Source: Carposina sasakii (Eukaryota > Arthropoda > Insecta > Lepidoptera > Carposinidae). From it: DNA of 64,000 nt. Shown piece after piece: positions 3,665 through 49,600 of this stretch (its first letter is position 1; each line of letters opens with the position of its first letter). The translations under genes and the position numbers were made by a program. The notes below the pieces were generated by a model. The model had not been told where the DNA came from and did not search any database. It saw only the letters and a list, made by a program, of their open reading frames with translations. The DNA lies in NCBI GenBank assembly GCA_014607495.2, contig CP053152.1, forward strand, positions 11,763,899 to 11,827,898, given 5' to 3'.

Positions 3665-4459
3665 ATGGAGTGGACTCGCAAAGAGGACAGAGTAGCAGTA
3701 ATTGCATTGCATCGTTGCGGCCATCCACCGAAGACGATATTCAACTTGCTTCAAAAGTTAAAACTCACGAAGAGGTTCGTGTACCGTACCATCAAGAGGT
3801 ACAATGAAACCTCTAGTGTCGATGACAAGAAAAGAAACGGCAGACCTCGTTCCGTTAGGACTCCAGGGGTCATCAAAGCAATCAAGGCGCGTATTGCAAG
3901 AAATCCCGTCCGCAAACAGAAACTGATGGCTTTGGAGATGGGATTAACCAGAAGTACCGTAAAAAAAGTACTCAATGAAGACCTGGGACTACGAGCATAC
4001 CGAAAAAAGAGTGGGCATCTTCTGAACGCGCGTCTGATAGCTATGAGAGCCAAGAAATGCAAAGTTTTGCTAAAGCGGTACGCAAGAAACAGACACCGCG
4101 ATATCCTGTTTACAGACGAGAAAATTTTTAATATCGAAGAGAAGTACAACAAACAAAATGACAGGGTGTACGCTACCAGCTCTGCGGCCGCTGGAAATGC
4201 CATTCCTAGAGTGCAGCACGGCCATCATCCATCATCAATCATGATTTGGTTGGGAGTGTCCTACTATGGCCCTACTGAAGTGCATTTTTGTGAAAAAGGT
4301 GTCAAAACCAGTGCAAAAGTGTACCAAGACACGGTTTTAGACAAGACATTGATTAAAGCAGTGGCCGATATCGACATGAATATGGTCCGTGCTGCTATTG
4401 ATGACTGGCCGCGAAGATTGAAGGCTTGTGTGAAAAATGGTGGCAATCATTTTGAATAA
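3665..4459 (+). pseudogene. Tc1/mariner-superfamily transposase, internally deleted
   Basis: A 264-codon open frame starting at an ATG. Residues about 1-110 form the paired helix-turn-helix DNA-binding region with the GRPRS motif (about 59-63) between the two HTH units. The first catalytic aspartate lies in LFTDEKIF, around residue 150. After the YQDTVLDKT stretch the frame jumps to a C-terminal tail (ADIDMNMVRAAIDDWPRRLK). Full-length relatives are about 340-350 aa. The missing block of roughly 80-95 residues is where the second and third acidic residues of the DDE/D triad lie. The frame stayed open across the deletion. I found no convincing terminal inverted repeats, so the element limits are unknown. 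The product cannot be an active transposase, though it could still bind DNA. Confidence 0.85.
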
Positions 4460-10504: not shown

Positions 10505-11290
10505 AAAGTCAAGCATTCCGTCGGCTACTCAGCCAGAGTGAAGAACGGAATTATAAGGCCTTGTCCCGGGGCCGCCTGCCCCGGGCCCTTGCTGCACTTC
10601 GCCGGACTTCTACAGCGCGAACAAACCGCGCCCGCGTCGCGTTCAGTAACCGCGCTCTGTGACCACGGACCTATACAGCGCGAACAATCCGCGCCCGCGT
10701 CGCGTTCAGTAATCCGCGACCGAGAAGATTCATCTGTCCGATCCAGTACCTACAACGTCTGCACCTGCATCTACAACTGTGACCCGTCCGTCTGGTCTGG
10801 TACCTGCAACTCCTACCTGCATCTACAACAGTGACCTGGCTGTCTGGTCCGGTACCTGCAACTTCTGCACCTGCATCTACAACTGACCCGTCCGTCGGAT
10901 CCAGTACCTTCAACTCCTGGCCGCAACTACCGCAACCCGGGGGCGCGACTCCTGGAACGCCGTCGACCCAGGACCCTCAAGAGGACTCTGCTCACCGACT
11001 TCCTACACTTTTACACTGTACAATCCTTCATACACGCTCTACTCACCCTCACTCACCTTCACGCATTGTTCATAGTGATCTCTCTTATACTCGTATATTG
11101 TGTTAATTTGTGTTGTAAATAAGTTCGTGTAACTTATATTTTCTTTTTATTTCGTTAAGTAGGTATTATATATATTTATTAGGTAGGCTACAATTTCTAC
11201 ATAACTGTTGCTATACGACTAACAGAACTATCTTACTTTGTCTTTGGAGGGTGTAGGGCCCGGTGGTGGGCGCACCCATAGTGAAAATTT
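10505..11290. repeat. GC-rich island with internal tandem repeats
   Basis: Composition changes sharply at about 10540-10980 from AT-rich to GC-rich. Inside are two copies (about 10608 and 10671, 63 bp apart) of a unit with ACAGCGCGAACAA and CCGCGCCCGCGTCGCGTTCA. After them come about three copies of a 51-57-bp unit built on GGTACCTGCAACT...CACCTGCATCTACAAC (10740-10910). Two plus-strand frames (10538-10834, 10831-11106) span it but look like translated repeat. Near 11241 a GGAGGGTGTAGGGCCCGGTG stretch resembles part of the arms of the inverted repeat at 62866-63252. It may be part of an LTR or hAT-type element, but I could not find its ends. Confidence 0.5.
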
Positions 11291-19300: not shown

Positions 19301-22300
19301 AAAAAGGAGGAGGTTCTCAATTCGTCTGTATGTATAATATTTTTTTTTTTATGTATGTTCACCGATATTTCCGTCAATTAATGACGGATTTCAAAAAATT
19401 TTTTTTGTTGGATAGAGTTCACTTCTGAGGTGGTCCCATTTTCACCAGGTCAGGATCTGATGATGGGATCCAGGAGAAATCAAGGGCAACCACCGAAAAT
19501 TGTATGCACGCATGGTGCTTTTGTTACGTAATCATGTCTTACTCAGGTATATGCTTCAGGGTGTCAACATCTAATGCTGCTGTGCTGATGATGAAGCTAC
19601 AGAACTTCTTAACGGTTAGGAGTTTGGATACAGTACTGCAATTGGTCAATGGAAACTATTTAGTAGTATGTAGGGCTAACGTGTTACTTGAATCAACATC
19701 TGATGCTGCTGTGCTGATGATGAAGCTACAGAACTCTTTAACGGTTAGGAGTTGGGAGACAGTACTGCAATTGGTCGATGGAAACTATATAGTAGTATGT
19801 AGGGCTAACTTGTTGCTTGTGAGGTATACTTGAATCAAAATCTGATGCTGCTGTGCTGATGGTCAAGCTACAGAACTCCTTAACGGTTAGGAGTTAGGGG
19901 ACAGTACTGCAATTGGTCGATGGAAACTATATATGTAGGGCTAACGTGATACTTATACGGGTAGATACTACTCCTGAGATGGTAATGATGAAAACCTTAG
20001 GTATACATGGTGTTTTTTCGTTGCCACCCTTAACTAAGGGTACGTACTCTATAAATCAAATAAAGTAAGTTTATGCAAAAAAAAAATGCTCAGAAACGAT
20101 GTAAATTTTTTTGAAACAATTTTTTTATTAGGTACTTGATCGGCGAAATGTATAGTGTCCAGTGTTTATGTTAGTTTTTTTGTAGACAGATATTAATTAT
20201 TTCTCGTGAAAAATCTTGCTACGCGCGTCTATGTGCATTCATGCAGAAAAATGCAGTCTATTTACTCAACTTTGGACCCTAATATTTTGGAAACCAGACA
20301 CTTCCCAGGTATGCTTCCAATGAGAAAAATGATAGTGATGATGAGGAGATTACGTAGTTTTCGGGAACGTTGACGACCAAAAATCAGCCTGTATAAACTA
20401 GCATCTATTTAAGTCCACAACGCATTAACACAACTAAAAATCGAGAAATAAACTGACTTTTAAAAAAAAAATTTAACCGACTTCAAACTTTAACTAAAAA
20501 GCGATAAATAACGTAACTAATTTATCTACTTAACACATATTAAATATCTCAAACTATTTAAATATTTACAACTTAATACCTAATACTTTAACAAAGTCAT
20601 CTTTAACTATTTAAATATTTATAATTATCACTTATTTTTTGGAGTCGGTGCCAGCCTAGGTAACGTAGTGTTGATGGACGCGCGCGACTGGCAAAGCCAC
20701 ACACACGGCAAAATACAATGCGGTGTAGTAGGCAGCGGTAATGCAATTTCCTATTCTTGGTTATACTATTTAGTGTGGGTCAGTTTTCTTAATTACATTT
20801 ATTTGTTTGGCTGGCACCGACTCCAAAAAATATGTGATAATTATAAATATTTAAATAGTTAAAGATGACTTTGTTAAAGTATTAGGTATTAAGTTGTAAA
20901 TATTTAAATAGTTTGAGATATTTAATATGTGTTAAGTAGATAAATTAGTTACGTTATTTATCGCTTTTTAGTTAAAGTTTGAAGTCGGTTAAATTTTTTT
21001 TTTTTAAAGTCAGTTTATATAATAAATAAGTGCCACTACAAAAAATAGATAAATAAACATTCACACACTACACAACACATTAACCTAGTCCCACATTAAG
21101 ATCCCTAAAGTCTTGTGTCGTGGGTACTAAGCAACGGTATATAAATACATAGATAAGTATAGAAACATCCATGACTCGGAAACAAACATCGATATTCATC
21201 ATATGAATGGTGTCGCAGGCAGGGTCACTACCTACTAGACCAATCGGCCATCAAGAGAGATACCTATGTAGAAATTCAGAAAATAATTATGGTAACAACT
21301 GAAACAAATTAAATCGCACTTACAGGTGATGTGTCCTGTACAATTTGTGAGAAGTAAATAAAGCCGGTGTGTGGCAAGGCAGCCGCTTGGGAAAACCCGG
21401 ATAAGGTCTTCTTCTGTTGCCCCAGCGGTAGCACATTGCATGCTGGCATTTTGGATAGCTTTGACAAGCCACCGGCCACACCCAATATCTTGGCTGCTGT
21501 TGATGCACCTGGAAACATAATGTGTCATTAGATATTCCCATTCAATCCAAGAAAATTAAGAAAAAACAATTATTCACTCAGTTTTAGACAAGTAAAACAA
21601 GATTGTTACTCTGACTTGATACATGTTAAAGTTTTCACTTTTGAACAATAGCATGACATAGGTTTGCCTTATTCTTTAATCTTCAAATATAATGTAACAT
21701 TTTTGATCATCATCATCGTCAGCCTATTGCAGTCCACTGCTGGACGTAGGCCTCCCCCAGTGTACGCCACATGGCTCGATCTCCCGTTTTTGCCATCCAG
21801 TCACTACCAGCCGTTACTTTAAGTCATCGGTCCATCTGGCCGGAGGGCGCCCAATGCTATGCTTGCCGAGGCGCGGTCTTAATTCGAGAACCTGTTTACT
21901 CCACCGTCCATCGGTTCTACGACAGATGTGGCCGGCCCACTGCCACTTCAGTCTGCTACATTTCGAGACTATGTTTGTCACTTTGGTCTTCTGCCGCATA
22001 ATCTCGTTTCGGACTTTGTCCATTCGCGAGATTCCGAGCATTGACCTTTCCATAGCTCTCTGGAGTGACATGTAATCGGTGAGCCAGCCCCACCGTCAGG
22101 TTTCACGTCTCGGCTCCGTAAGTCATGGCTGGTAGAACGCATTGATGGAACACCTTGGTCTTGAGGCATTGTGGCAAGGATGACTCAAAGATATGACACA
22201 ACTTCCCAAACGCTGCCCACCCAAGCTGCACTCTTCTGGTGATTTCTCCCTCGAAGTTGTCTTTACCCAACTGCAATATTTGCCCAAGGTATACATACTT

Positions 22301-24984
22301 CTGAACAACTTTTAGGGCTACGCCTTCGACGGATATCGGCTCAGGGATGATGTGTCGATTGCACATTACCTTGGTCTTGTCCAGGTTCATCCCTAATCCC
22401 ACACGCCTCGAGGCAGCATTGAGACTAGACCTCCGACTTCTTTATAACCTGCCGTACAGTATGGATGTGGTCCACGGTGCTGTAGCCTTTGCGAAACCCG
22501 GCCTGTTCAGGTGGCTGGAAGGCGTTAAATCTCAATACCAGACGATTCGTGACGACTCTCGAGAACAGCTTATAGACGTGGCTCAGAAGTGTGATCGGAC
22601 TATAGTTTTTGAAGAGCGTTTTGTCTCCCTTCTTGAAAAACAATGCCACCACACCTCTGCTCCACGCCTTAGGAGTAGTACCATTGTCCAATATGGAGTT
22701 AAATAACTCAACTTCAATTTCGGCGAGAATCTCTGGAACCGATGTGACGGTTTGGCCATTCGAGGATCGAAGCTTTGTCAGGTGACTCCTTCCCAGCGCC
22801 TTGGTAAAGACTTTCGATCCTCAATTTTTCTCAATCGCCTCCTTAACGAGATGAGTATTCCAGCTTCGGAGGTCGCGTCTCACCATGCTCCTGATCTTTT
22901 TGTTGAGCGGCTGGGAATCTGGCAAAGCATTGAATAGCTGAATGCGTTGCTAAGCACAGATATCGAGAACAGCTGAACCATTTTCGCTAATTCTTTTTTT
23001 AGATTATTCTTAGAAATACGAGGATAGTTCCTACAGAGAAAATATTTTTTAAAATTGCCTGAATAAGTCTAAAAACAACTTTTCTATAGCGGCCGCCTAC
23101 GACTTTGCTCACGTGAAAGGGCATTACATCCGTGCAAAGCCAGGGTGAATCCCTAGTTGGACATAAATGTTAATTTGACTTTACTCACCAACTATAGCAG
23201 TAACATTGGGTGCTATAAATGTCATTCTGCTCTCCACATATTCATAGATCTTGGATTTAAAGTTGTTAATGTCTCCAGCCATGTCACAAGCCTCATAGAT
23301 CTCTGCCAGTTCATCTTCTGAGAGCAATTTCCTAAAAATACATACAAACATATTCTTTATCTAACTTTATTGCAAATACCTTTGAAGATTTTAATATTAA
23401 TAGATATCTGGTAGTGTGTTTCACCAAACAGTTTCATTGAATGATGGTGTACAGTGTGTATGACTACATTATTGTTATTACGATATACAAAAAATGTAAG
23501 TTATAAATATTATAAAGAAAATGAAAAAAAGTTTCACCCAAGTGGGTTTTGAACTCACAAACTCTCGCAAACTGTGCTTTCGCTCTAACCAACTGAACTA
23601 TCAGGGCAAATAACTCTGATGACGAATTTTACCATCTCTTTTACATTACATTTTTGGCAATGTAATTTTTTCATCCCGAAATGTAAGTTCTAAAATTGGG
23701 CATAGGAGTTATTCTATGAAGAGGACTCTACTTATTCACTAGCAGATACAGTTAAAATAAATACATTCATTATACAGGGTGTAACAAAAAGGGTATGTTA
23801 AGCGAAAAGCTATGTAAATAGCCCACTATAGAGAACCTATCTACAAAATTTGAGACTCGAAATCACATTTTTATTTTTCAATATTGTATGAAAATTTCTG
23901 AGATATTTAAAAATTCTCCATACTATCGGGAAAAATAAACATGTGATTTAGGGTCTCAAATTTTGTGGATAGGTTCTCTATAGTGGGCTATTTACATAGC
24001 TTTTCGCTTAACATACCCTTTTTGTTACACCCTGTATATGTAATAGAACGTTTGAATGACCGAATATATACAGCATAATATTCTAACTATTAACCGTACA
24101 TTAAAAAAATTATATAACTCAAAATATAATTGTTACCCTTGTGTAGTAGATGCAGTGACTGAGACAATCATGATAGTAGCTTGAGTTATATAACTTTGAA
24201 GTGTTTCATTGTTTTTGGCTTTGTCCAAATTATTTCCAAGTTCCTTCACTGTTCTTATGTACTCTAAGGGGGTGACTATCAGGGATTCCAACTCGGGGAA
24301 GCGTTTCTGATACTTGTCACGCACAAATCTGTGAATAATAGCTGGAAAATTAAATATTTTTGTTTTTAAAACATACCTATACTATATTTCATCAACAAAT
24401 AGTTCAAGTTAAGTAAGTTTCTAATATTATTTTATAAACAAATTATTTTCTGTAGGTATTGTGTACAAAGTTGTAGGACATCATAATGTACATTTTTTTA
24501 TACATATAATTGTGTATGAATTTAGAAGTAATAAATGCAACGTACCAATTTCTCCATCAATTTCAACAGCAATGTTATTGGCTTCTACAATCAGCTGGTA
24601 CTCGGGATCAGATTCCATTAAGCCTGTCACATCAATTTTTTTCCTATTATTGCCTACATTTTGCTCAATTTCAGACATCACCTGAAATAATACAGGTAAG
24701 TAAAAATCTTACATTAATCTGCAGATTTATGTAGGCCAAATTGCAGATCTAACTTACAAATTTCTAGATATAGGTGCACTTACCCGTTTTAGTCTATCTG
24801 AATATCTCAACTTTGCCAAATCCCTAATGGAAACATTTTGGAGATCTTCCTCTTTTGGGATAACAGGATGTGGCACAGCAAATTCATGAGGTGTTTCACT
24901 TGATGTTTTACTCTCAATAGCTGCTTCTAGTTCACCGTCATCATTCTCTTCTAAATCTGCAAGTAGCTCGTCTGCTAAAGACAT
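13366..24984 (-). CDS. Prp31: U4/U6 snRNP splicing factor Prp31 (last coding exon not found)
   Basis: Core splicing factor that binds the U4 snRNA-15.5K complex and bridges U4/U6 to U5 in the nucleus. Eight minus-strand exons join in one frame: 24984-24784, 24681-24546, 24341-24137, 23331-23189, 21508-21324, 18450-18310, 17116-16967 and 13590-13366, all with GT/AG borders. They give 462 residues against about 499 in the human protein. Visible are the N-terminus MSLADELLADLEE, the NOSIC/coiled-coil region (FPELESL, YIRTVKELGNNLDK), the Nop domain (ASTAAKILGVAGG, MPACNVLPLG, KTLSGF), the basic RKKRGGKRVRKMKER stretch and the C-terminal RISKTLQKNLQKQ to GTASSVAFTPLQ. Exon 8 ends in phase 0 at a GTTTGT donor, so about 35-40 residues are missing. 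I found no matching exon in 1-13365. Introns carry an RTE fragment, a Helitron, a SINE, a MITE and a 210-bp inverted repeat. The gene is divergent from Ntf-2, 950 bp away. Confidence 0.95.
13740..13917 (+). repeat. RTE LINE 3' tail fragment
   Basis: A plus-strand fragment of the RTE 3' end: GGCGGCTGGTAGTGACTGG, then GGCATGCTCTGGG and GGCCTACGTCCAGCAGTAGA before CTGCAATAGGCTGA. It matches the 3' end of the longer minus-strand copy at 21712-22940. It lies just upstream (transcription sense) of Prp31 exon 8, in intron 7. Confidence 0.7.
13918..16400. other. Prp31 intron 7 DNA, no gene
   Basis: No exon recognised. At about 14340-14460 there is a diverged copy of the repeat with GGCGCTAGTT...TGTGTAACTGCATAC that also occurs near 41430-41575 and 41825-41960. 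The remainder is featureless AT-rich sequence. Confidence 0.45.
16405..16554. mobile_element. MITE with TCTGACCGTCA-type inverted ends, copy 1
   Basis: About 150 bp, starting TATAGTAGATTCTGACCGTCA and ending with the inverse TGACGGTCAGAATCGACTATA-type end. The interior has a GGACAGACCTGAC block. The same family is seen at 26303-26488 and 50600-50751. Confidence 0.7.
17278..17497 (+). repeat. SINE-like repeat with ATGT tail, copy 1
   Basis: About 220 bp running from GCTGCTTCTCTTCCCAGGCA through ACAAGTCAGTAGAGGGACA and GGCACCATGTGGTTCTATCG to CCGTAAGGGATAAAGGCGTG, ending in a (TATG)n-type tail. The same sequence lies inverted at 58317-58548, where it has jumped into another element. The tail and lack of inverted ends fit a retroposed SINE. 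I do not recognise the head. Confidence 0.65.
17600..17855 (-). repeat. RTE-tail-derived short repeat, copy 3
   Basis: Diverged copy of the 2964 and 12911 elements (AGTCCACTGCTGGACTTAGG at the left, ATACCCACGGGCAGACATGG near the right). It lies in Prp31 intron 6, about 70 bp from a Helitron. The short frames inside it are shadows. Confidence 0.7.
17923..18238 (-). mobile_element. Non-autonomous Helitron, copy 1
   Basis: On the minus strand the element begins TCTATACATATAATAAAAAT and ends ...GGGCGTCCACTAG, with the hairpin-forming CCACGCGGA...TCGCGGGCG region just before the CTAG end. It is flanked by A and T as expected for Helitrons (TC start, CTRR end, insertion between A and T, no duplication). 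At 316 bp it is far too short for a Rep/helicase protein. Copies at 30140-30442 and 52154-52422 share both ends. Confidence 0.8.
18861..19046. mobile_element. hAT-type MITE
   Basis: Begins CAGGGGTTCCCAAACTTTTT and ends with the inverse ACTTTGGGAACAACTG, the terminal inverted repeat style of hAT elements. The flanking 8-mers (TCGTAACT, GTCTAACT) match at the last five bases, so any target-site duplication has decayed. The interior is non-coding. Confidence 0.65.
19285..19500. repeat. Lepidopteran-type interspersed repeat
   Basis: Contains AACCGACTTCAAAAAAAGGA followed by GGAGGTTCTCAATTCGTCTG and, further on, GGTCAGGATCTGATGATGGG. I recognise this as a phrase common in lepidopteran genomes. 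The first part recurs in the arms of the inverted repeat at 20447-21018. It runs directly into the tandem block that follows. Confidence 0.55.
19560..19965 (+). repeat. Tandem repeat, three diverged units of about 125-145 bp
   Basis: Three head-to-tail units start near 19563, 19690 and 19835. Each has AATGCTGCTGTGCTGATG (or GATGCTGCTGTGCTGATG), then AACGGTTAGGAGTT, ACAGTACTGCAATTGGTC and GTAGGGCTAAC. Units differ by small indels. A 109-codon plus frame over units 1-2 is repeat translation, not a gene. Confidence 0.8.
20006..20391. mobile_element. TA-flanked non-coding DNA transposon, copy 1
   Basis: 386 bp between TA dinucleotides, starting CATGGTGTTTTTTCGTTGCC and ending GACGACCAAAAATCAGCCTG. 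The two ends are imperfect inverted repeats (CAGG..GTTTTTCG / CAGGGGATTTTTGG type, clearer in the second copy at 29971-30589). This copy is uninterrupted and shows the empty site for the Helitron inserted in copy 2. Confidence 0.7.
20447..21018. repeat. Long inverted repeat, 210-bp arms, 152-bp loop
   Basis: 20447-20656 is almost perfectly the reverse complement of 20809-21018, apart from length changes in the A/T run near the outer end. The inner border of each arm reads GGAGTCGGTGCCAGCC or its complement. The loop (20657-20808) is non-coding. Transcribed in Prp31 intron 5, it would fold into a hairpin about 210 bp long. It may be two head-to-head copies of one repeat or a foldback element. 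Confidence 0.85.
21059..21247 (-). repeat. tRNA-derived SINE, copy with internal deletion
   Basis: Same family as 46155-46386. The right end holds the A-box region (inverted: GACCAATCGGCC), and the 3' part ends at ATTCACACAC on the left. The segment holding the B-box in other copies is missing here. Confidence 0.65.
21712..22940 (-). pseudogene. RTE-type LINE fragment, reverse transcriptase internally deleted
   Basis: Minus-strand reading gives recognisable reverse-transcriptase pieces: FFKKGDKTLFKNYSPITLL and PPEQAGFRKGYSTVDHI (22691-22425), then MNLDKTKVMCN and YLGQILQLGKDNFEGEI (22402-22103), and a C-terminal stretch with WQWAGHICRR (to about 21814). The part that should carry the catalytic YxDD motif is missing at about 22403-22425, and there are frame breaks. 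The 3' end, GGCCTACGTCCAGCAGTGGA then CTGCAATAGGCTGA and a GAT-rich tail (about 21712-21745), is the source of the short tails scattered through the window. It is inserted in Prp31 intron 4. The 5' part is absent. Confidence 0.85.
23525..23620 (-). repeat. tRNA-like sequence, probably a SINE head
   Basis: The minus strand reads like a tRNA 5' half (TAGTTCAGTTGGTTAGAGCG, A-box-like), followed about 40 bp later by GAGTTCAAAACCC (B-box-like). The acceptor stem does not pair and the anticodon arm is overlong, so I read it as a tRNA-derived SINE or pseudogene rather than a working tRNA. Confidence 0.45.
23775..24034. mobile_element. Palindromic TA-flanked MITE, copy A
   Basis: 260 bp between TA dinucleotides. 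Starts CAGGGTGTAACAAAAAGGGT and ends with the inverse CCCTTTTTGTTACACCCTG. The inverted similarity continues inward (ATGTTAAGCGAAAAGCTATG, GCCCACTATAGAGAACCTAT) so that almost the whole element can form one hairpin. Four relatives lie at 29081, 54533, 58186 and 59931. It is in Prp31 intron 3. TA flanks suggest mobilisation by a Tc1/mariner-type transposase. Confidence 0.85.
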
Positions 24985-32321: not shown

Positions 32322-35300
32322 TTAGGATCCTCCTTTCTTTCTTCCCCTGGAGCCGGGTAGCGCGACTCCTCGCAGGGACCTCATTGCCATCGCTCTGTTG
32401 AAGTGGCGCTGCGTTTTGTGTTCCTCGACATCACTACCGTGGTCCACTGACGATAGTATCACTAGTAACACGCCCATCACCTGGAATAATAGATAAACAG
32501 GATTAGCTTATGCTATCTATGTGATTATTTTGGTGGCCTTTGGTCTTTGATACTATGGGAACTTGGCAAGCCCGACATTTCGTTTTCACACAGGCTACGA
32601 AAACGGCGATAGTGTATTTTAGCTGAACATAGACCTTCCCTAAAAAAGGCTTCTGTAGACTAAAGACGGGACAGTAACAGCGCTCTTTGATTGGGGGCTC
32701 GCGCATGTTGTGATACAAGAAACTCTGAACTGCCCTTCAACTGCTCTGCATTCAAAATTAACATAAGGTATACATTACATGGTATGTATAACAATACATT
32801 TTTGAAATTTTCAAAATGGCGATGTTAACTTTACACACAATAGTGGTATTTGTTTAGCGTTTCAGTATTTGTGTGGCTGTCACTTACATCCTGTATTATA
32901 TGTATGTATATAATAATAATATTAATAATTTTTATTCTCAGACATACGTAGTGTCCATAATATGTTACATTATCTATTATACAGTTACATTACACAATGG
33001 AATAGCGACGCAGCAGACACACGATAATGAGAAGTGTGTAGGCATGCACGGACGCCTCGGGAATATTCTCGATGTCCTTGAGGGCCGTATGTATGTATGT
33101 AAGTGTATGGAATAGCGCACGCACCAGACACACGATGATGAGCAGTGTATAGACATGCACGGACGCTTCGGGAATGTTCTCGATGTCCTTGAGGGCCGTA
33201 TGTATGTATGTAAGTGAATGGATCAGCGCACGCACCAGACACACGATGATGAGCAGTGTATAGACATGCACGGACGCTTCGGGAATGTTCTCGATATCCT
33301 TGAGGGCCGTATGTATGTATGTAAGTGAATGGATCAGCGCACGCACCAGACACACGATGATGAGCAGTGTATAGACATGCACGGACGCTTCGGGAATGTT
33401 CTCGATATCCTTGAGGGCCGTATGTATGTATGTAAGTGAATGGATCAGCGCACGCACCAGACACACGATGATGAGCAGTGTATAGACATGCACGGACGCT
33501 TCGGGAATGTTCTCGATATCCTTGAGGGCCGTATGTATGTATGTAAGTGAATGGATCAGCGCACGCACCAGACACACGATGATGAGCAGTGTATAGACAT
33601 GCACGGACGCTTCGGGAATGTTCTCGATGTCCTTGAGGGCCGTATGTATGTATGTAAGTGAATGGATCAGCGCACGCACCAGACACACGATGATGAGCAG
33701 TGTATAGACATGCACGGACGCTTCGGGAATGTTCTCGATATCCTTGAGGGCCGTATGTATGTATGTAAGTGAATGGATCAGCGCACGCACCAGACACACG
33801 ATGATGAGCAGTGTATAGACATGCACGGACGCTTCGGGAATGTTCTCGATATCCTTGAGGGCCGTATGTATGTATGTAAGTGAATGGATCAGCGCACGCA
33901 CCAGACACACGATGATGAGCAGTGTATAGACATGCACGGACGCTTCGGGAATGTTCTCGATATCCTTGAGGGCCGTATGTATGTATGTAAGTGAATGGAT
34001 CAGCGCACGCACCAGACACACGATGATGAGCAGTGTATAGACATGCACGGACGCTTCGGGAATGTTCTCGATATCCTTGAGGGCCGTATGTATGTATGTA
34101 AGTGAATGGATCAGCGCACGCACCAGACACACGATGATGAGCAGTGTATAGACATGCACGGACGCTTCGGGAATGTTCTCGATGTCCTTGAGGGCCGTAT
34201 GTATGTATGTAAGTGAATGGATCAGCGCACGCACCAGACACACGATGATGAGCAGTGTATAGACATGCACGGACGCTTCGGGAATGTTCTCGATATCCTT
34301 GAGGGCCGTATGTATGTATGTAAGTGAATGGATCAGCGCACGCACCAGACACACGATGATGAGCAGTGTATAGACATGCACGGACGCTTCGGGAATGTTC
34401 TCGATGTCCTTGAGGGCCGTATGTATGTATGTAAGTGAATGGATCAGCGCACGCACCAGACACACGATGATGAGCAGTGTATAGACATGCACGGACGCTT
34501 CGGGAATGTTCTCGATATCCTTGAGGGCCGTATGTATGTATGTAAGTGAATGGATCAGCGCACGCACCAGACACACGATGATGAGCAGTGTATAGACATG
34601 CACGGACGCTTCGGGAATGTTCTCGATATCCTTGAGGGCCGTATGTATGTATGTAAGTGAATGGATCAGCGCACGCACCAGACACACGATGATGAGCAGT
34701 GTATAGACATGCACGGACGCTTCGGGAATGTTCTCGATGTCCTTGAGGGCCGCCAGGGCGGGCTCGAAGTCCGGCCGCAGGTCTAGGGCGTGCCGCAGGT
34801 GCACTGCTGCTTCCTGTTACAGTTTACATTGCTTTTACGGTACAAACGCAGTTGGGTAAAACATACAAAGTAAAACAAAGCTCCATGTTTCTTTCTACCC
34901 TGCTTGTCTTGTTATATTGTTGGTTGCTTGCTAATGCTAGAGTGAATAGGCACTTTCTAGGCAAACATGTACCACCCTAGGCCACATCTTGCTTAACATC
35001 AGATGCAATGGTGGTCAAATGTTTTGTGAAAAAAAAATGTATCTGTGCATGTGTAATCCTCAAATAAAAACCTATTCTATTTTAAAGTAGGTATAGTATA
35101 GTTCATTACTTGTAGATTACAGGAAAACCTATAAGAATTCTTGACATTGTATGGAAACCTCTATGACGCGAGTTCAACTAGCACTTGTCCGTTTTTTTTA
35201 ATTGGCCCGTAATGTTTTTCATTGCTAAGCAAACCTGCGGAAAATTAAATTCAATAAAAAAAGACAGGTGTACAACCTGATAATGTCCATAAGCTTTGAA

Positions 35301-37623
35301 GATCTCCCCCAGCGTGAAGTACTGCTGCCAAGCGCTGCGGTCCGGCGGCTGCACCTCGAGTGAACGCCGTGTTAGATAGATGGCATCGTCGAGGTATTGC
35401 AGGGTGAATAATACGCGTGCCAGATTCAGTAGCACCTAAAGACAGTAAGTTTTATTTAGAATTGTAAACACATAAAAATATAAGAGCACCCGAAACTGGT
35501 GTATAAAGTTTATGAATATGAACAAAGTGAAAGTATGTTTGGAACATACTAAATGGAGATCTGTAGTCTCTGTCTGCCCCTGATGGACATTGGTGTGAGG
35601 TTATGAATGGATATAAACACATAATATCATTGAGGATTTCTGGGAGGTGGGTAGCAGCACCTCCAGTGTTGACATGGTCCGAAAATCACCCTGCAGTCAC
35701 CATGGGCCACTATGGGCAAAAAGCCCCCAATGCAGTAGCCTAGTGGCATGCCCTGGAGGAGGCCTACGTCCAGAAGTGGATCAGTTTACCAATTACATAC
35801 TTCTCTTTTAGAAATCTGAAATGAAGCAACATATTATTATCTAGTATGTGCCTTGCTATGATTAACTGGACTAATAGTCACAATCAACCACCCCTGTTTT
35901 GAAGGATCCTAGTAGAATTATAAAAATGAAATAACAACATGTTTGTAAACAGCAACTTACTTCTGCATTATAAGGTGAGACAGCCAGTGCTCTTCTGAAG
36001 CACTCAATAGACTGCCTAGTATCCCCTTTAATTCTCCAGAAGTTGCCTATTTGGTTATAAAGCTGCACTGATTTTGGTTTCTCCCTTTTAGCTTTTTTCA
36101 ATCTCTTCTCCAATGCATTTATGTCTAATTCTGTTACACCATTTTTGTATGACTTTTTCTTTGTAAAAATGAGAGCCACCTAAAGAGATTTATTATTTTT
36201 TTAACTAGTGTTGAATAAAACTTTAAAAAAATATGAGACATTAGCAAAATGATTTAAATAAGCAGCTAAATTAAATGAAGCAGTTCAAAGGCATGTGATT
36301 GCTGAGACATAATATCTCATTTAACACATTCACTGCCAGCGACTATGTATTTGCGTCTTATTGGCTTTATGGTGCCACCAACACTAATTATTTGTATCCT
36401 GCAGGCATTGAACTAATGTCGGCATGCTTAGAATAAAACATATGCCAGCATCAAATGTGTTTTTAAAAGAGGAATTTCATTTAGCTTCTTGAGTGTGTGA
36501 ATAAATAGCAGCTCCAAATTTAAATTACCTGTGGCTCAGGTACATTGGGATGTCTGTGGCGTCGTGCCACACCGACAAGGTTATCATAGTATGTAAAGTT
36601 AACAGCCTTCCCACAGTCTAAGTACTCATCCTCCACATCACTAGGTGGCTCGGCTGTTGTGTGTTCCTCCCCATTTTCTGTATTACTTCTGCTAAATTTG
36701 ATAAATTGAAATTAGAATTAATGAAATTGGCACCACTGTCTATGTAGTTTTAACACCATTTATACATATTTATTTAGCCATTAAAATCCACATAGAGTGC
36801 ATTTATATTAGTGTCTTGGTTCGGTACATACCTCTGTTGTTCATAGATGTTACAGTCTGTGCAAAACATGTCAAAGCCATGTTTTGTCCATGTATTACCA
36901 TAATACACTGTCGAAGTTATAATGTTAAATATAGAGTCTTCTTCACTCATCTTAGCTTTATCAGAGTCGTCCTGAAAGAATAATGGAAATAACAATGAAG
37001 GTAGTAAGAGATTTCAAACATGAATTTTAACTTATTAGTTGTAGATTGTAAATTGGTGTGGTGCATAGATTACTATTATAAAGTTTAAACTAATGTAGGT
37101 ACCTAAAGTTTAGATTATGTTAGCATGTTTGTTAATTGTATTGTGTACCTATGTATGTACCTTCATTGATTATTACAAATTGTAGGTAAGGTTGCAGTTT
37201 TTTTTTTCATACAAAAAGTGATCGCCCATAAACGAAGTCGCTGGCCCATAGTAATTTTAATTTTGAAGTCTTTTTGCACACCCTTATCTATACCCTGACC
37301 ATTGTTTTTTGTTACATTTGAACATTGTAATTTTAAGGTAGGTAAATCAATGCTTTACTTGTAACATAAGGCTTTTCTTCAAGCTGTTCTATATCAGATA
37401 GATAGAGGTAGGTATACATTGAAATATGTAGAAATGAGATTGATTATATAAAAGTCTACAAGAACAGTAATTTATGACCGACCTGAGGTAGCGTAGTCCC
37501 ATCAACAATTTGTCCATCTTCAACGTTTAATTTCCAAATATTGGACGTTCTAGAATTAGTTGCGATAATTTGAAATGAAAATATATAGAGAATCAAACAC
37601 GTTAAGTATGGCGATTCCCCCAT
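32322..37623 (-). CDS. TPR-repeat single-pass membrane protein, TTC17-like block
   Basis: Seven minus-strand exons join in frame to about 371 residues: 37623-37483, 36971-36832, 36691-36529, 36179-35961, 35435-35277, 34813-34679 and 32480-32322. Residues 1-25 look like a signal peptide (MGESPYLTCLILYIFSFQII). Exons 2-3 have cysteines and acidic residues. Exons 4-6 encode three TPR-like helix pairs (LYNQIGNFWRIKGDTRQSIE, LLNLARVLFTLQYLDDAIYL, YFTLGEIFKAYGHYQEAAVH). The exon 6/7 junction creates a membrane helix (VYTLLIIVCL + VMGVLLVILSS), followed by a basic tail ending KKGGS. The TPR block resembles the first block of TTC17 in order and motifs, but this protein is far shorter and membrane-anchored, so orthology is not claimed. 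Exon 3 has a tandem TAGCAG acceptor (start 36691 or 36688). Intron 6 begins inside the 111-bp array. Confidence 0.82.
32990..34755 (-). repeat. 111-bp minisatellite built from exon 6 and its splice donor, 16 copies
   Basis: Sixteen head-to-tail units of exactly 111 bp. In the TPR gene's direction each unit is 72 bp of exon 6 (ALKDIENIPEASVH to IIVCL), the donor GTGCGTGCG and 39 bp of intron start in total, ending in an ACATACATACATACG run. The first unit is the real exon end. Copies are almost identical; the commonest difference is GAC/GAT, synonymous in the gene frame. The last copy (about 32990-33100) is diverged and its donor GT has become CT. Two minus frames stay open over the array (566 and 604 codons) because the unit is 37 codons without a stop in those frames. 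No acceptor lies in the unit. Confidence 0.95.
35628..35784 (+). repeat. RTE-tail-derived repeat, partial
   Basis: Plus-strand copy in an intron of the TPR gene: GGTGGGTAGCAGCACCTCCAG at the left, GGCATGCCCTGGAGGAGGCC and TACGTCCAGAAGTGGATCAG at the right. Inverted relative to the 2964, 12911 and 17600 copies. Confidence 0.65.
36325..36465 (+). repeat. Short interspersed repeat, copy 1
   Basis: Shares CATTCACTGCCAGCGACTA, ATTTGCGTC, and GATGTCGGCATGCTTA-like blocks with 49248-49392. Ends show a weak inverted match (CACATTC...GAATGTG type), so this may be a decayed MITE. Located in an intron of the TPR gene. Confidence 0.5.
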
Positions 37624-38078: not shown

Positions 38079-41000
38079 CCGTAAACTGGTCCTACTTTGC
38101 TCCCCCCTGGGTAACTATGCTCCAACTTTTAAAAAAGTTTTGCCACCAATATTATCGAATTCTATGACATGCTTCATAAAAATGTGAACGCATCCGAAAA
38201 ATTTGAGGAGTAATTGGCAACACTGCTTTGACAAGTTCTCGATTCGCCATCTTTTTCTTCTGTCAGGCGTAACGTTTGTACAACGATAAAAATTTTGTTT
38301 TTTTTTGTTTTGACAAAAGCCGTTTGCATCACAAAGACCGAATAGCTTATTAAGGTACGTACAGTTTATAGGTGTTTTGAGTATAATCAGGTAAACGAAA
38401 ATGTATTTATTTCAGTGGTTTACATCGTTGGTCTTGATCTAACCTTGTTTTTGTTATATGTTCCTACTTTGCACCGCATGATGGGGTAACTATGCACCTG
38501 GAGCAAAGTCACCCCAAAAGTAGGTAGCTAAATAAATATGTATAAAAATTGTAATAAATAATTGTGATTTCATGAAAATTTTATGTTTTATTTCAGACAT
38601 AGAATTATAATCTCGGGACTCGTTATTCTATGATTTCAGATTAAAATGCCAAGAAATTACAAGAAACGCATAGGCGCTAGAAATTATAAAAATTACACCC
38701 AAGATACTTTATTAGCATGTTTGGCGGCCATAGAAAATAGGGAATTAACACAGAGAAAAGCGAGTGAATTATATGAAATCCCCAGAAGGACTATAATTAA
38801 CCAATTAAGACTTCAGCGAAAACGAATACCGTCACGACCACCAGGAGCTCCTACAACATTTACACTTGAAGAAGAGCAAATATTCGTTGATTGTATAATA
38901 CGGCTAAGCGAATATGGATTTCCATTAACAACATTTGATCTTAGAATTGTCATCCGAACATATTTGGACAAAATTGGCCGCAAAGTGACAAAATTTAAAG
39001 ATAATTGTCCTGGTAATGAGTGGGTATCCTGCTTTTTAAAAAGGAACAGAGTTTTATCACAGAGATTTGCAGCAAATATAAAGCGCAATAGAGCAGCAGT
39101 TGGGCGTGATGAGATTAACTCTTACATCCAAAACTTGGAAGAGGTAGTAAGAGATGTCCCACCTGAAAATATATGGAATTTCGATGAAACTAACCTCTCT
39201 GATGATCCCGGCCAAAAAAAAATCTTGACGAAGCGAGGTGCAAAATACCCGGAGCTTATAAGGAACACCTCCAAAAGTTCAACTTCCATCATGTTTTGCG
39301 GCAATGCTGCCGGCGAATTCCTACCCCCATATACCGTATATAAGTCCAAGCAACTGTGGAGCACATGGACAGAGCATGGCCCAAAGCATGCCAAATATAA
39401 TAACAGTCCGTCAGGTTGGTTTGATATGAATATATTTAATGATTGGTTTTTTACTCATATCCTACCCAGGCTGAAGAAACAAGATGGCCCAAAAGTCATA
39501 ATTGGAGATAACTTGTCATCTCATATTTCTGTAGATGTTCTAAAAGCTTGTGATGAAAATAATATTAGATTTGTATGCTTGCCGCCTAACAGCACGCATT
39601 TGACACAGCCGTTAGACGTTGCCTTTTTCCATCCAATGAAGGTGGCATGGAGAAAAATTCTTACTGAGTGGAAAGCAAGTGTACAAGGCAGTCGCGAAAC
39701 AGTGATACAAAAAAGCAACTTCCCAGTTCTGTTAAACAGACTGCTTGATTTATTGGAACCGACGCAAAAGTTCAGTTTTCCGAAAATGTGGGATTTATCC
39801 CCTTGACGCCAATCCACTGTTAGAAAGGTTGCCTCGAACTGTCGACAAGCCTGCTTTAGAAGATTCTTTTCTAGAGAGTCTCGAAGCTAAGAGGCTAGAG
39901 TGGACGAAATCTGGAACTACAAAACGACGTCGTACGAAACTAAACATCACTCCCGGGAAAAGTGTAACGGGAGAATTAGGCACACTTTTAAACCAAACAG
40001 AAAATGAACCATCTGCACAGCCTTCAACATCAAATAACCCACGCCGTCATCGCAGTAGAGCCAGTAGCGAAAGCACTTACGCAGACAGTGACCACATGTC
40101 CACTCATAACGCTTCAGAACTTGGTTCTCTTGGAGATTTAGAAAACATTGAAAATGACACCAAATCCGTGGATGAAAATTGTGATCAAATTAGCAATTTC
40201 AAGCCACTCGTCAAGGCAGTTGGGGAATATGTGGTATTCACATATGAGGGCGAAATGTTCCCGGGCGTTATTACAAAAATAACTAATAAGGGACCATATG
40301 TATCTTCTATGAAGAAGTCCTTAAAATCCTGGAGGTGGCCTACACCAGTGGATGAAATCCAATATCACTGGAAAGAAATATTAGGGAGCATTAATCCGCC
40401 AAAAAAAGTGAGTCATCATCGCGAAATATATTCTGTCCCTGAACTTAATTATATCTGGGACTTTTAAAATTTAAATTAGGACATTGTAGGTGGTAGGTAC
40501 ACCTAGATTTTAAGTTTTTTGTTTCAAAAGTTTATTATTTTGATTTTATAAACCTTTACTTTGATATTATAAGAAATGACTGATTTCCGTCCAAAGTACC
40601 TAGACCAAATATAATTATAGTTTCTAAAACTTTTTGCTTAAGTTTTTGTTTAAGATTTACCTCTAAGGATGATGCTTTGGTGAATAAGTACATAATAAGA
40701 ATTAGAATGTAAGAAAAACAACAAAAAAGTGTTTTTGATTGAAAATGTCGAATTAAATAAATATGATTACCTAGAAAATTACTTTTATTATGTTTTTCAT
40801 CCTTTTACATCGTCATCGATAGTCAAAATGGGTTTAGAGAATTATTATTGGAGCATAGTTTGAGTAAAGACAGCGTAATTGTGCTCCAAAACCGTCCTGT
40901 ACTGATTTCTCTTGTAAACAATATTCTGGAGCAAAGATGTCCCAGGTAAGGGTAACATTGCTCCTTATTAAATGTTTTATATATATAATGTTATGTTTTA

Positions 41001-43633: not shown

Positions 43634-46600
43634 ATGAAGAAGGAACGAACGGGTGACAATTGTCGCCCTTTCAAATTATAAGTATTCCACGAAACTAAGT
43701 TTAATTTAATCATTCCAACAATAGGTTCTTATTAATTCATATATTTATTTCTATACAGCTCATCAAATCTTGAGTTTAACTGGGATAAGTTTTGAGAGAC
43801 GAAGTGTTATTGTAAGTGTTATCTAGGTATGCATTTTTAGTTAGACGGGTACTAAGTAATTAGCTAACGAGGACCAAAATTTAATTTTCAGGGATTTGTT
43901 GAGTTAACTATAGTGCCGCTTAAAGATAATTTACGTTACATTCGTCTCAATGGAAAGCAGTGTCGAATTTATCGTGTATGCCTGAATGACCAATATGAAG
44001 CGAACTTTCAATATTGCGACCCTTTTCTGGATATTTGTCAAGCAGATCCAAACACGTAAGTTTTAACATTACAATATCAAGTTTACTATTGTTGGCTATA
44101 AATCATATTTGGTTTAAATTTAATTGTTTCCTAAAGTGTCCTTTGACAACTGTTTGGTGTAGTAGGTAGTGGCCCTGCCTGCCATTGGTCCTGGGTTTGA
44201 ATCCCGGTAGGTGCAAACATTGATATGATGAATATCGATGTTTTTCCGAGTCATGGATGCTTCTATAAGTATCTATGTATTTATATACGGTTGCTTAGTA
44301 CCCATGACACAAGACCTTAGGGATCTTAGTGTGGGACTAGGTCAATGTGTTGGAAATTTACCTAGTAAAAGCTCACCTAGAGAATACAATGATACTATTC
44401 ATGAAATATGTATAAGAACATTTGCATGAAAAAAAAAAATTATGATTGTTATGCTAAATATGAGCCTCCTCCTCCTCGCGTTGTTTTCCTCATTACTGAG
44501 GGTGACCCCCGCTGCATGAGTTTTTCCTGTACAATTTCCCTCCATCTGCTGAGATCCTTAGCATCTTATTCTTATTAGCTTATGCTGGACATGATAGTGT
44601 CTCCTGATGTTATAGTTTAGAGCTACTGAAGTTTCTTAATCTCCATTCAATTCGGGATTAATCAAATATTAAAATTGGAAATTGTAATTAATAAGTGATC
44701 AATTTTAGGAGATCATTGGATGTCTTCTCTCAATACCATTTGGCTGCAGCCCAAAAAACTGACCCTGATCATAATTCCGGAGAGCTTCATATCCAAGTCC
44801 CTGATGAAGCTATACATCTAGTGGGGGAAGGGAGGGGGCTTCGGATTGGGATAGAGTTTTCACTGGAATCTCCTCAGGGCGGTATGCACTTTGTTGTACC
44901 GGAAGGGGAAGGATCTTTGGTTGAGGTAAGATGGTGAACAAAATAATGTTAACTGTAATATGATGTAACTATATATCAATATATATATATGAACAATAAT
45001 AATTTTATAACTCTCTTATAACTTTGTATAAATAATTATTGAAATGGGTATTTATCTAAAATTTTACCATGCATTGAATATGCATTCATCTATACCCTTA
45101 AAAATTTATTCTGATATTGTTGATTGTAAAGTAAGCCACACAGTTCCACAGTGAGTTGAGTTTATAGCAATTTATTTTATTTACAGAAATCTGCCCATAT
45201 GTTTACATATGGGCACTCCGCAAGGCTCTGGTTTCCATGCGTGGACAGTTTTGCAGAGCCTTGCACATGGAAGCTTGAGTTCACAGTTGATGAGTGTCTG
45301 ACTGCAGTATCATGTGGGGAATTAGTTGATGTGGTGTTTACTCCAGATCATAGGAGGAAAACTTTCCACTATTTAGTTAATACACCAGCTTGTGCACCAA
45401 ATATTGCCTTGGCTATTGGGTAAGTTTGGATTATGTTATGTAAAAGACTTTTTTGTGTATAACTGAATAAAGTTTCAACTCTATAAAGGTCAGGGTTCGA
45501 AATTATAATTATCAATGATAATACAGAAAATAGGGTTGATGGAGTATAGCTTTTTTCAAAAGTCATATTGCTAATGATTTGGAGTTTCTTTTCATAGCCA
45601 GTTTACCTACTCTCCTCAATTATATGTATGTGACATTTTTAGAATATTAAGATCTGTACAGGTACAGGCTCGCACCTACACCGTCTGACTGGTGGCTTAA
45701 CCTTTGGGCTATTACCACCAAGCATTGACTGTATTTAGCAATTCATATAAACTATGTATTCCAAACCATTCAATTGCAAATAGGAACAACCAAGAAAGGA
45801 TTGTACCTATAGTGCTTAATCTTTTATTGTTTACCCATAGACCATTCGAATCATATGTGGATCCATTTATGAATGAGGTAACTCACTACTGCCTTCCCAA
45901 CCTGATGCAAATTCTGAAGAACACCGTGCGGTATTTGCATGAAGCATTTGAGTTTTATGAAGAGACCTTGTCTACAAGATATCCATATCCTTGTTATAAA
46001 CAAGTATTTGTAGATGAGGTGGGTAAGATTTTATAAATAGAGCTATATGAAACATATTATCTCATTTGATATGGACTTATCCGAGTTCGTTATTTAAATT
46101 TAAATAAAATATTAATAGTAATAGTAAAAATAGTAAAACCGTGAATTTAAACTATATTCACACACTACACAACACATTAACCTAGTCCCACAGTAAGATC
46201 CCTAAGGTCTTGTGTCGTGGGTACTAAGGAACGGTATATAAATACATAGATAAGTATAAAAACATCCATGACTCGGAAACAAACATTGATATTCATCATA
46301 TCAATGTTTGCACCTACTGGGATTCGAACCCAGGACCTATAGCGTCATAGGCAGGGTCACTACCCACTAGACCAGTCGGCCGTCGTAAAATTAAATTAAA
46401 TTCGTGTTTACCATTCCTATGGAAATTTCGGAAAATCCTTTCATTGGGCTACCCTACAGTACCCAACATATTATATGCTTTGGCATATAAGCTTCCTGCA
46501 ACCAATAGTTTAGTTTAATTAGTTTGTGCAGTGTCTGCAAACTTTTATGCATTTAATTTGGGAATTTCGGGAAATCCTTTCTTCTTCTTTCTTTCCTGTT

Positions 46601-49600
46601 AACAATTTGTTATAATTTCCAGACTCAAGACGATACCACAGCCTACACAACCATGTCAATAATGAGTACTCATCTGCTGCACTCAATCGCGATAATAGAT
46701 CAGACGTACATAAGCCGCAAAGCTATGGCCCAAGCGGTTGCCGAACAGTTTTTCGGTTGCTTCATAACCATGCAGAATTGGTCAGATTTGTGGCTAGCTA
46801 AGGGTATACCAGATTACCTGTGCGGCTTGTACTCGAAAAAGTGCTTCGGCAATAACGAGTATAGGTATTGGATACATCAGGAGCTGAAAGAGGTATGTAT
46901 TTGTTTAGTTCTTTTAGGGCTCATTTTTCCAAACGTCAGATAGCCTATCAAAAGAATAAAGTTGATGCTGTCTGTTTCTAAAACTTGAACATGATAGAGA
47001 CAGCATCAGCTTTATTCGTGATAGGCTATCTGACGTTTGGAAAAATCGCCCCTAGACACATTGAGACCCATAGGGCCATAGCACATCTCCGCTGAGAAAT
47101 AATAACTGCGGAACTGCATATACATATACGGACAGACAGCGGGAAGCGACATTGTTTTATAATGTAGTGATGTATGTAGCAAAGTGATACCATTTTCTTT
47201 TACATTTGGTAAATAGGTGGTGAGTTACGAGGAGCAATATGGTGGAATAGTCCTGGATCCGTGGCAATTACCCGCGAATGGAGCGAGAGTGGAACCAAAA
47301 GATTTCTTCTATTTCCCTGTGAGGAATGTCCATACAATGTCGCCGAGGTATATTGAAGTAAGTTGTTTCATGATTAGGTATTTACGACTTAATAAGTTAA
47401 GACATACATTTAATTACTATGATTACTAATAAGATAATAGATAGCAATATGAGTTAATATCGCATCCCTGCTAGATATATAAAAGTTTCGTACCTTGAGC
47501 TGTTATTCCTCTTCCCCCACACTCAAATATTGTCCTCATGTACAGAAGTTGTAGATAAAAGCAAGACTATTTAATTTTTATAATTCGGCTAATGTAACGT
47601 AAAATCGACGAAAGTTATAATCGAGCAAGTGACAGACGATTAATGAAAGGTCAATGTCCTAAAATTATAGTTCTCCATCACTGGCCTATACTTGACATAA
47701 GAGCATCGTGCCTTTATTTCTTTACTCCTTCCAGGTGATGCGTAAGAAGTCTCATTTAGTGCTTAGAATGTTGGAGCAGCGTATTGGTCAGGAGTTGCTT
47801 CTCCAAGTCTTCAACAAGCAGCTGTCTTTAGCCACAAATGCTGCCAGCACTAAGATTGGCAGCGGTTTATGGGGCCATCTGTTGCTATCCACGAATTTAT
47901 TCGTAAAGGCCATATTTACGGTGACCGGGAAAGATATGGCGGTGTTTGTTGACCAATGGGTGAGGACTGGTGGTCATGCCAAGTTTCAATTGACCTCCGT
48001 GTTTAATAGGAAGAGGTAATTATGATTTGTTTATTTTATTTTGATGCTTATACATTTGGGTTAGAGTTAGAGTCTCTGTTTATTTTTATTTATTAGATTT
48101 TAGGTCTATGTTCAGCGCACTTTCTATAGATAAAATGAAGATGATAATTAAGTTAACAAGCTATAACAAAGCCTAAGAGAATGCCTGAGATCTTTATATG
48201 CAGCTTATATGTGCTAGAAACTTTAATGCTAATTTAATTTTTACAGGAACACAGTAGAACTAGAAATCCGCCAAGACTCGGTCCCCGAGCGTGGTATACG
48301 TAAATACGTAGGACCGCTCCTAGTCCAACTTCAGGAGTTAGACGGAACCTTTAAACACACTCTTCAGATTGAGAACACGGTCGTCAAGGCCGATATCACG
48401 TGCCACAGCAAGAGTAGACGTAACAAGAAGAAGAAGATTCCTCTGTGCACTGGAGAGGAGGTCGATATGGATCTGTCGGCTATGGAGTGAGTTTTTTTAA
48501 TTTAACTGAAAAAAAAATCTGCAGGGTTATTGTTCGCATCCGGTAGGCTGATTACGTAACTCGCAAAAGCAAAGCGGTATCAGAAAATGACAGAGATAAT
48601 TGTGAGTGTGTAAGTGCGAGGCGTCTTTCCACGCCTAGATTTGGCTTTATTTTGCAAGTTACGTAATCAGCTTACTGGTAGGGAAAATATAAATGTGAAA
48701 CTAAGTTAAGTGTGATGAAATGTGTGAAATATTTTTTTACTTGACAGTCACTATTATGTTTCTCGCCCGTATCTTGTATGTAAATAACTTTATTACCTCA
48801 CTAAATGGATTCCAACACTAAGGCCGCCTCCGCATTAGGCGAACAGTGAGCGGCTGACAGTTTGCTTCCCTATACATTTTAAATACGGCTGCGTAATGTA
48901 CGCAGTTTCCGACGTTTCCCTTGCCGACTTATTCTCAGTCGGCAGCGCAGTTTGTTCACTACGCCGACGTTCCGTTCGCTAATGTACTTTCCCTCACAAG
49001 AATTTGCAAGCTATTTGCTGCTAATACACTCTAGTTCGCCGCTTAGTTGATATTGAGTTAGCGACCAATACGCCACTCAGAGTCAGTCAGCGAACAGTCA
49101 GCCGCTCACTGTTTGCCTAATGGGGACGCGGCCTTACTGTTCTATTACAAAACCGCGTCTAAAGTTTGACACTGTTTGAAAATGACATTTGACAGCTGTA
49201 TGATTTATGTATGGAATTTCTGTTAAATTTAGGCAATGTTTTGTGTTTAGCATAACACATTCAGTGCCACTGACTACGTATTTGCGTCATCGTGGTTTTC
49301 TAAAGTGCCACGCTTATTTGCGTCCTAGCACTAGCTGTGGAACTGATGTCGGCATGCTTAAAAAATCTGCCAGCAGGGAATGTGAAAATCAATGTGTAAC
49401 TTCTATTGTCATAACACAGTTTAGGTCCGTTTATATCTACCGCGAATACCGACCGCGCACGGCCCGTGTCTGTTGGTGTCTGCGCGGCCGTGTAACGATA
49501 GATATAAACACGTTAATAGACACTGTATAAAAGAATATTATTTTGTCTGCCGCGGCACGCGTTTGACACGCTCAATGTCTGTAGATATAAACGGTCCCCT

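What the first reader, a model, noticed from the sequence alone, without database searches (positions are those of the whole stretch)
32990..34813. A minisatellite that multiplies a splice donor and a membrane-helix exon in an open frame
Each 111-bp unit contains the last 72 bp of exon 6 of the TPR gene, the donor GTGCGTGCG and the first part of intron 6. Fifteen copies keep the GT (34679, then every 111 bp down to 33125); the last copy has CT instead. The unit is 37 codons with no stop in the gene frame, so splicing from any donor to exon 7 (32480) stays in frame and would add n x 37 residues, each with another copy of the hydrophobic VYTLLIIVCL segment. The most frequent copy difference is synonymous (GAC/GAT). 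This could be a tunable membrane anchor made by donor choice and by repeat-number change, or simply tolerated because the first donor always wins. I know of no described gene with this design.
Basis: partly seen in the sequence, partly recalled or inferred. Interest (0 to 1): 0.88.

Follow-up and report, generated by a model that had tools for sequence, protein, structure and literature searches.

The report
Donor-copying repeat in moth TPR gene
A moth gene for a probable membrane-anchored TPR protein carries a 111-base tandem repeat that copies the end of one exon and its splice donor fifteen times in an open frame; it is probably a tolerated repeat in which the first donor does most of the work, but it could yield longer proteins and is easy to test with RNA.

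Summary
Sixteen 111-bp units (32996-34752, minus-strand gene) straddle the exon 6/intron 6 boundary of a TTC17-like TPR gene (371 aa spliced; about 90% identical to the closest moth proteins). Fifteen units keep the donor CTG|GTGCGT; splicing from each to exon 7 stays in frame (371 to 889 aa). The sixteenth has CT and runs to a stop at 32992-32990.

Such a unit is open by chance in about 15-28% of cases, and a second forward frame is open too. Units 1-14 differ at one site, so they carry no selection signal. The normal helix spans the exon 6/7 junction, so a unit copies half of it. None of 174 fetched proteins holds the repeat linker. The design has a precedent: the human ABCA7 VNTR also multiplies a splice donor, with one-unit retention at about 2%.

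New here: the Phthorimaea operculella orthologue's predicted protein repeats the same exon tail with other breakpoints, hinting that this exon duplicates recurrently.

Best reading: a recent, mostly neutral boundary minisatellite with first-donor dominance and perhaps a few percent of longer in-frame isoforms. No RNA and no relatives' DNA could be examined.

The parts
32996..34752 (-). 111-bp tandem array, 15.8 copies, straddling the exon 6/intron 6 boundary
   Evidence: TRF; 16 unit starts every 111 bp
34679..34813 (-). Exon 6 as ended by the first donor; its last 73-74 bp are the exonic part of unit 1
   Evidence: gene model; orthologue alignment
33124..34678 (-). Fifteen identical 5' splice sites GTGCGTGCG; first base of GT at 34678, 34567, ... 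33124
32990..33086 (-). Unit 16: diverged, donor GT replaced by CT, reads VCLLRRYSIV then stop TAA 32992-32990
   Evidence: 6 differences from unit 1 in the exonic part, 5 synonymous
32931..32936 (-). AATAAA after the read-through stop; possible intronic polyadenylation signal (weak: about one such hexamer or its ATTAAA variant is expected by chance in a stretch of this size, my estimate)
32322..32480 (-). Exon 7: second half of the membrane helix, C-terminal tail, stop 32324-32322
35277..37623 (-). Exons 1-5 of the TTC17-like gene: 37623-37483, 36971-36832, 36691-36529, 36179-35961, 35435-35277 (exon 3 may start at 36688, see Noticed in passing)
   Evidence: boundaries set by eye on GT/AG and frame; alignment to 30 orthologues; TPR families

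Best explanation
A tandem duplication across the exon 6/intron 6 boundary of a TTC17-like TPR membrane protein gene (probably of the secretory pathway, inferred) produced a two-copy state. The 3' edge copy decayed and lost its donor, while the inner unit was recently amplified to 15 near-identical copies, presumably by unequal exchange or slippage. The array is tolerated because splicing from the first donor restores the normal 371-aa protein and because every other donor is also in frame. Most transcripts should use the first donor. A small fraction may use a later donor and add 37n residues between the TPR domain and the intact C-terminal helix. Shown: array, donors, frame, gene identity. 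Inferred: history, donor choice, tolerance.
For: Array and copy pattern: units 1-14 differ at one site, edge units 15 and 16 are diverged, the usual picture of a homogenised array with a decaying edge. The spliced 371-aa product aligns with 30 orthologues at 75-92% identity, end to end except for four cut or altered models (P0010, P0027, P0030, P0031), so the gene looks intact. The boundary after IICL/IVCL is old: ORFs of other insects run on past it into V and unrelated sequence, as expected of reading into the intron (for example P0122, P0125, P0131, P0138). All 15 donors have the same sequence and the 5 tested have the same predicted pairing, so mainly position separates them. In the closest measured case, ABCA7, the two frameshifting events are given as 14 +/- 6 and 2 +/- 1%, by order of naming the second being retention of one unit, and retention did not change with array length (PMC5954066, passages). 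No protein with the linker among 174.
Against: No RNA was seen. Earlier studies cited in PMC5585400 have SRSF1 and hnRNP A1 pushing choice to intron-proximal and intron-distal donors respectively (passages), so with 15 equal donors the last could win if U1 occupancy is high. In ABCA7 a retained unit shifts the frame, so decay of that mRNA may hide real use of the second donor; longer arrays there did change splicing (exon 19 skipping rose), and alternative products exceeded the canonical one in 90% of one brain region's samples, so such an array is not always neutral. Five of six exonic differences in unit 16 are synonymous (P about 0.005-0.01 for unconstrained change), which could mean that the extra copy was once translated.
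Confidence: 0.66

Rival explanations
1. Functional donor ladder: donor choice (and copy number) sets the length of a stalk or of extra half-helices between the TPR domain and the anchor, giving a family of 371 + 37n aa isoforms.
For: Fifteen intact donors, all in frame; unit 16 differences mostly synonymous; the Phthorimaea operculella orthologue P0010 repeats the same exon tail in its predicted protein with a different linker and breakpoints.
Against: Openness is cheap; the copies are too alike to show selection; repeated half-helices with R and H fit poorly as an anchor; no such isoform among the fetched proteins; P0010 is a hypothetical protein, probably an automatic gene model.
Confidence: 0.1
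2. Alternative 3' end: intron 6 is retained and translation runs through all 16 units to the stop at 32992-32990, with polyadenylation after the AATAAA at 32936 (881 aa).
For: Open frame to the stop and AATAAA 54 nt beyond it.
Against: One AATAAA/ATTAAA is about what chance gives there (my estimate); the product would lack the conserved exon 7 half of the helix and the conserved tail.
Confidence: 0.06
3. Intron-proximal (last) donor preferred: most mRNA carries 14 extra units (889 aa).
For: Rule that strong equal donors with high U1 occupancy favour the intron-proximal site (Eperon and colleagues, recalled; those papers are not held); SRSF1 effect as cited in PMC5585400.
Against: Exon 6 would be 1689 bp; in ABCA7 the passages seen report retention of one unit only, at low level; the conserved protein would be radically changed.
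Confidence: 0.08
4. Assembly artefact or wrong copy number.
For: Tandem arrays are often misassembled; only this one window was seen and its genome could not be searched.
Against: The C/T pattern over units 1-16 (C T T C T C T T T T C T T T C C) is not periodic and the edges differ; 1.8 kb is within one long read.
Confidence: 0.1

Closest known systems
ABCA7 intron 18 VNTR (human; PMC5954066, passages)
   Same: A minisatellite starting at an exon's donor, its first two bases being the GT; use of a donor one unit downstream observed as one-unit retention; repeat number varies between people
   Different: 25-bp intronic unit, about 12 to 427 copies, retention shifts the frame; here 111 bp with 73-74 bp of coding exon, in frame; no RNA or population data here
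LPA kringle IV-2 coding VNTR (PMC7613587 and PMC11462820, search listing only)
   Same: Tandem coding units; copy number changes protein length
   Different: 5.6-kb units (listing) with complete exons and both splice sites (recalled); here a unit has a donor but no acceptor that was shown
Tandem duplication across an exon-intron boundary, potato RdRp (PMC4974935, abstract)
   Same: A duplication crossing an intron-exon boundary copies splice signals
   Different: One duplication that made a new intron; here many copies of a donor and no new intron shown
DDX3Y / MSY2 minisatellite (PMC3039753, passages)
   Same: About 100-nt tandem unit inside a gene's transcript with alternative splicing nearby
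   Different: Supplies a transcription start, 2-4 copies, untranslated; the passages do not place the donors in the repeated unit

Membership tests
TTC17-like TPR membrane protein (insect) | Full-length collinear similarity to annotated TTC17-like proteins | tested here: met
   (best 91% over 100% of the query)
TTC17-like TPR membrane protein (insect) | TPR repeats | tested here: met
   PF07719 E 1.8e-14, 53 bits against a cut-off of 27
Human TTC17 architecture | Large soluble ER protein whose only hydrophobic segment is the signal sequence | tested here: not met
   371 aa with a hydrophobic C-terminal helix against the description in PMC10783571 (passages)
Donor-multiplying boundary VNTR (ABCA7 kind) | Tandem unit carries the donor GT in register | tested here: met
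Donor-multiplying boundary VNTR (ABCA7 kind) | Copy number varies between individuals | not testable with these tools
   one sequence only; own-genome search unanswered
Donor-multiplying boundary VNTR (ABCA7 kind) | Later donors used at low level | not testable with these tools
   no RNA data
Coding VNTR (repeat units translated) | Repeat present in protein or mRNA | tested here: inconclusive
   linker absent from 174 fetched proteins, which include all hits of the two repeat-directed searches; the set is clustered at 90%, one search scored only part of its candidates, and the species may be missing

The most novel reading that the evidence does not exclude
Exon 6 of this moth TPR gene is a hotspot that repeatedly duplicates its tail plus donor, and in this species the 15-donor ladder is really used, giving a distribution of in-frame isoforms (371 + 37n aa) whose mean is set by splicing factors and whose ceiling is set by a fast-mutating repeat number.
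Probability: 0.1. Interest if true: 0.8.

Novelty: new variant of a known kind. Interest (0 to 1): 0.42.

Why it matters
It is a natural experiment in splice-donor choice: fifteen donors with the same local sequence, differing in position, all in frame so that decay of frameshifted mRNA does not blur the count. One RNA experiment would show how position weights competing donors. It also bears on how exons lengthen and how coding minisatellites may be born from intron boundaries.

Tried and rejected
Coding selection from the open frame: rejected as evidence, since a second forward frame is open too, and units with a shuffled tail or a random 38-nt tail stay open 84% and 44% of the time, times 1/3 for a length divisible by three.

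Donor masking by RNA structure: local folding gives the same mean unpaired probability (0.25) for 5 of 5 donors examined, out of 15; a first attempt with another routine gave impossible negative values and is discarded (last part).

Species by protein: best hits are Choristoneura, Bicyclus and Cydia, all near 90%, not decisive.

DNA of the intronic linker in viral contigs: 0 matches. Rfam at gathering threshold: 0 matches in the window. Bacterial promoter/terminator scan and inverted repeats gave nothing useful. Solved structures: the matches shown lie in the TPR part and say nothing about the array.

Micro-intron idea (donor of one unit to a CAAG in the next, 48 nt): considered by eye, judged too short to splice, not tested.

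Not done: codon polarisation of unit 16 against unit 1 (no relatives' DNA), array search in the own genome, fold of the read-through frame, fold search.

Full report
The array. TRF reports one 111-bp array at 32996-34752 with 15.8 copies, 98% matches and no indels. Read on the minus strand it has 16 unit starts, 34751 to 33086, every 111 bp. Units 1-14 are identical except for a C/T at position 13; unit 15 adds three differences in its intronic tail; unit 16 is diverged. The tail of unit 15 shares CTATTCCAT with the sequence after unit 16, so the two edge units look older than the rest (direct reading).

The gene. Five exons lie upstream of the array, exon 6 runs into it, and exon 7 lies downstream; with GT/AG boundaries set by eye they give a 371-aa protein. 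It has TPR repeats and matches orthologues along its length: Choristoneura fumiferana 91%, Bicyclus anynana 90%, Cydia fagiglandana 90% (120 of 533 hits listed). Thirty of those 120, mostly Lepidoptera and some unnamed, were aligned (75-92% identity to the window protein). Sources call several of them tetratricopeptide repeat protein 17 or 17-like. Human TTC17 is described as a large soluble ER protein (PMC10783571, passages), so this short form with a C-terminal hydrophobic helix differs in architecture. An AlphaFold2 model of the Choristoneura orthologue (37 sequences) has TPR helices and one continuous helix 311-338 at the C terminus, which covers the exon 6/7 junction (after residue 325 of that protein); mean pLDDT is 67 overall and 74, 89 and 69 in the blocks 311-320, 321-330 and 331-340.

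Donors and frame. All 15 donors read GTGCGTGCG; unit 16 has CTGCGTCGC. Splicing from each to 32480 gives 371, 408 ... 889 aa with the same C terminus; exon 6 grows from 135 to 1689 bp and the intron shrinks from 2198 to 644 bp. Reading through the whole array gives 881 aa and stops at 32992-32990, with AATAAA at 32936.

How surprising is the open frame? With the intronic tail shuffled, 84% of 5000 units stay open in the gene frame; with random 38-nt pieces of this window, 44% of 5000; each is to be multiplied by about 1/3 for a length divisible by three, so 0.28 and 0.15. A second forward frame is open as well. The open frame is therefore no evidence of coding use. What is mildly odd is unit 16: of six exonic differences from unit 1, five are synonymous, which random change would give in 0.5-1% of simulated cases. 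The sixth changes V to A at a position that is nearly invariant, though one other fetched protein, P0142, has A there. Constraint on the true exon's lineage could explain part of the synonymous bias, and without relatives' DNA the changes cannot be polarised.

Does a unit copy a membrane helix? Only half. The native helix is VYTLLIIVCL from exon 6 plus VMGVLLVILSS from exon 7 (best mean hydropathy over 19 residues 3.14). In a unit the second half is replaced by VRALIHSLTYIHT, best 2.16. Whatever donor is used, the last unit joined to exon 7 restores the full helix, so extra units would lengthen the stretch before it, perhaps as weak or partial helices (inference).

Relatives. Among the 174 proteins fetched, one carries the exon-6 motif twice by a pattern search: P0010, Phthorimaea operculella (hypothetical protein NE865_08852), with VHLRHALDL...IIVCL, a linker CKCNTMQPL, the same 42 residues again, then VSAVLV. 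Its repeated piece starts further upstream and its linker is unrelated, so it is an independent event if the gene model is right. None of the 174 carries this window's linker or unit-16 ending. These searches see proteins only; copies hidden in introns of other species would be missed. ORFs of other insects that run past ...IICL or ...IVCL into V and unrelated sequence show that this boundary is old.

Donor choice. Local folding does not distinguish the donors (5 of 15 examined), so position and trans factors must decide. SRSF1 is reported to favour intron-proximal and hnRNP A1 intron-distal donors (studies cited in PMC5585400, passages). The best measured parallel is the human ABCA7 VNTR: 25-bp units, the first two bases being the exon 18 donor; retention of a single unit was seen; the two frameshifting events had levels of 14 +/- 6 and 2 +/- 1%, by order of naming the second being unit retention; retention did not depend on array length, whereas skipping of exon 19 rose with it (PMC5954066, passages). 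On that model the first donor wins here and later donors are minor. Because they are in frame here, they could be translated. Exon 7 here is the last coding exon, so the ABCA7 effect on the next exon has no direct counterpart (inference).

Verdict. A real and neat structure, best read as a recent boundary minisatellite that is tolerated, with a small chance of a used donor ladder. The general design has a published precedent, so I file it as a new variant of a known kind. Nine answered paper searches, not all on this point and judged from their listings, showed no in-frame, exon-containing donor ladder; the library holds only open-licence papers.

Noticed in passing
P0010: Phthorimaea operculella orthologue model repeats 42 residues of exon 6 with a different linker; possible independent duplication of the same exon.
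   Followed up: partly
window 33014-33086 (-): Unit 16 differs from unit 1 by six bases in the exonic part, five of them synonymous; unexplained.
   Followed up: partly
window 36686-36693 (-): NAGNAG-type acceptor at exon 3 (ttagCAGAAG): the window model has QQSRS, most aligned orthologues QQR, and P0013 and P0018 show both forms, so the protein may be 371 or 370 aa.
   Followed up: no
window 38643-39800 (+): Transposase ORF (DDE_1, HTH_psq, both above cut-off) about 1 kb upstream of the TTC17-like start codon.
   Followed up: no
window 3665-4453 (+) and 22431-22820 (-): HTH_29 ORF (mariner-like by eye) and a weak reverse transcriptase match, below Pfam's cut-off.
   Followed up: no
window 45701-54009 (+), extent by eye: TAF2 gene (TAF2-like TPR domain at 49618-49977; an M1 match at 46557-46937 is below cut-off). 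A PRPF31-like gene seems to lie on the minus strand near 24987-13300, by eye only.
   Followed up: no
window 19564-19938 and 10742-10918: 129-bp (43-codon) tandem array, 2.8 copies, overlapping an open plus-strand frame 19429-19830; another array of 52 bp, 3.4 copies.
   Followed up: no
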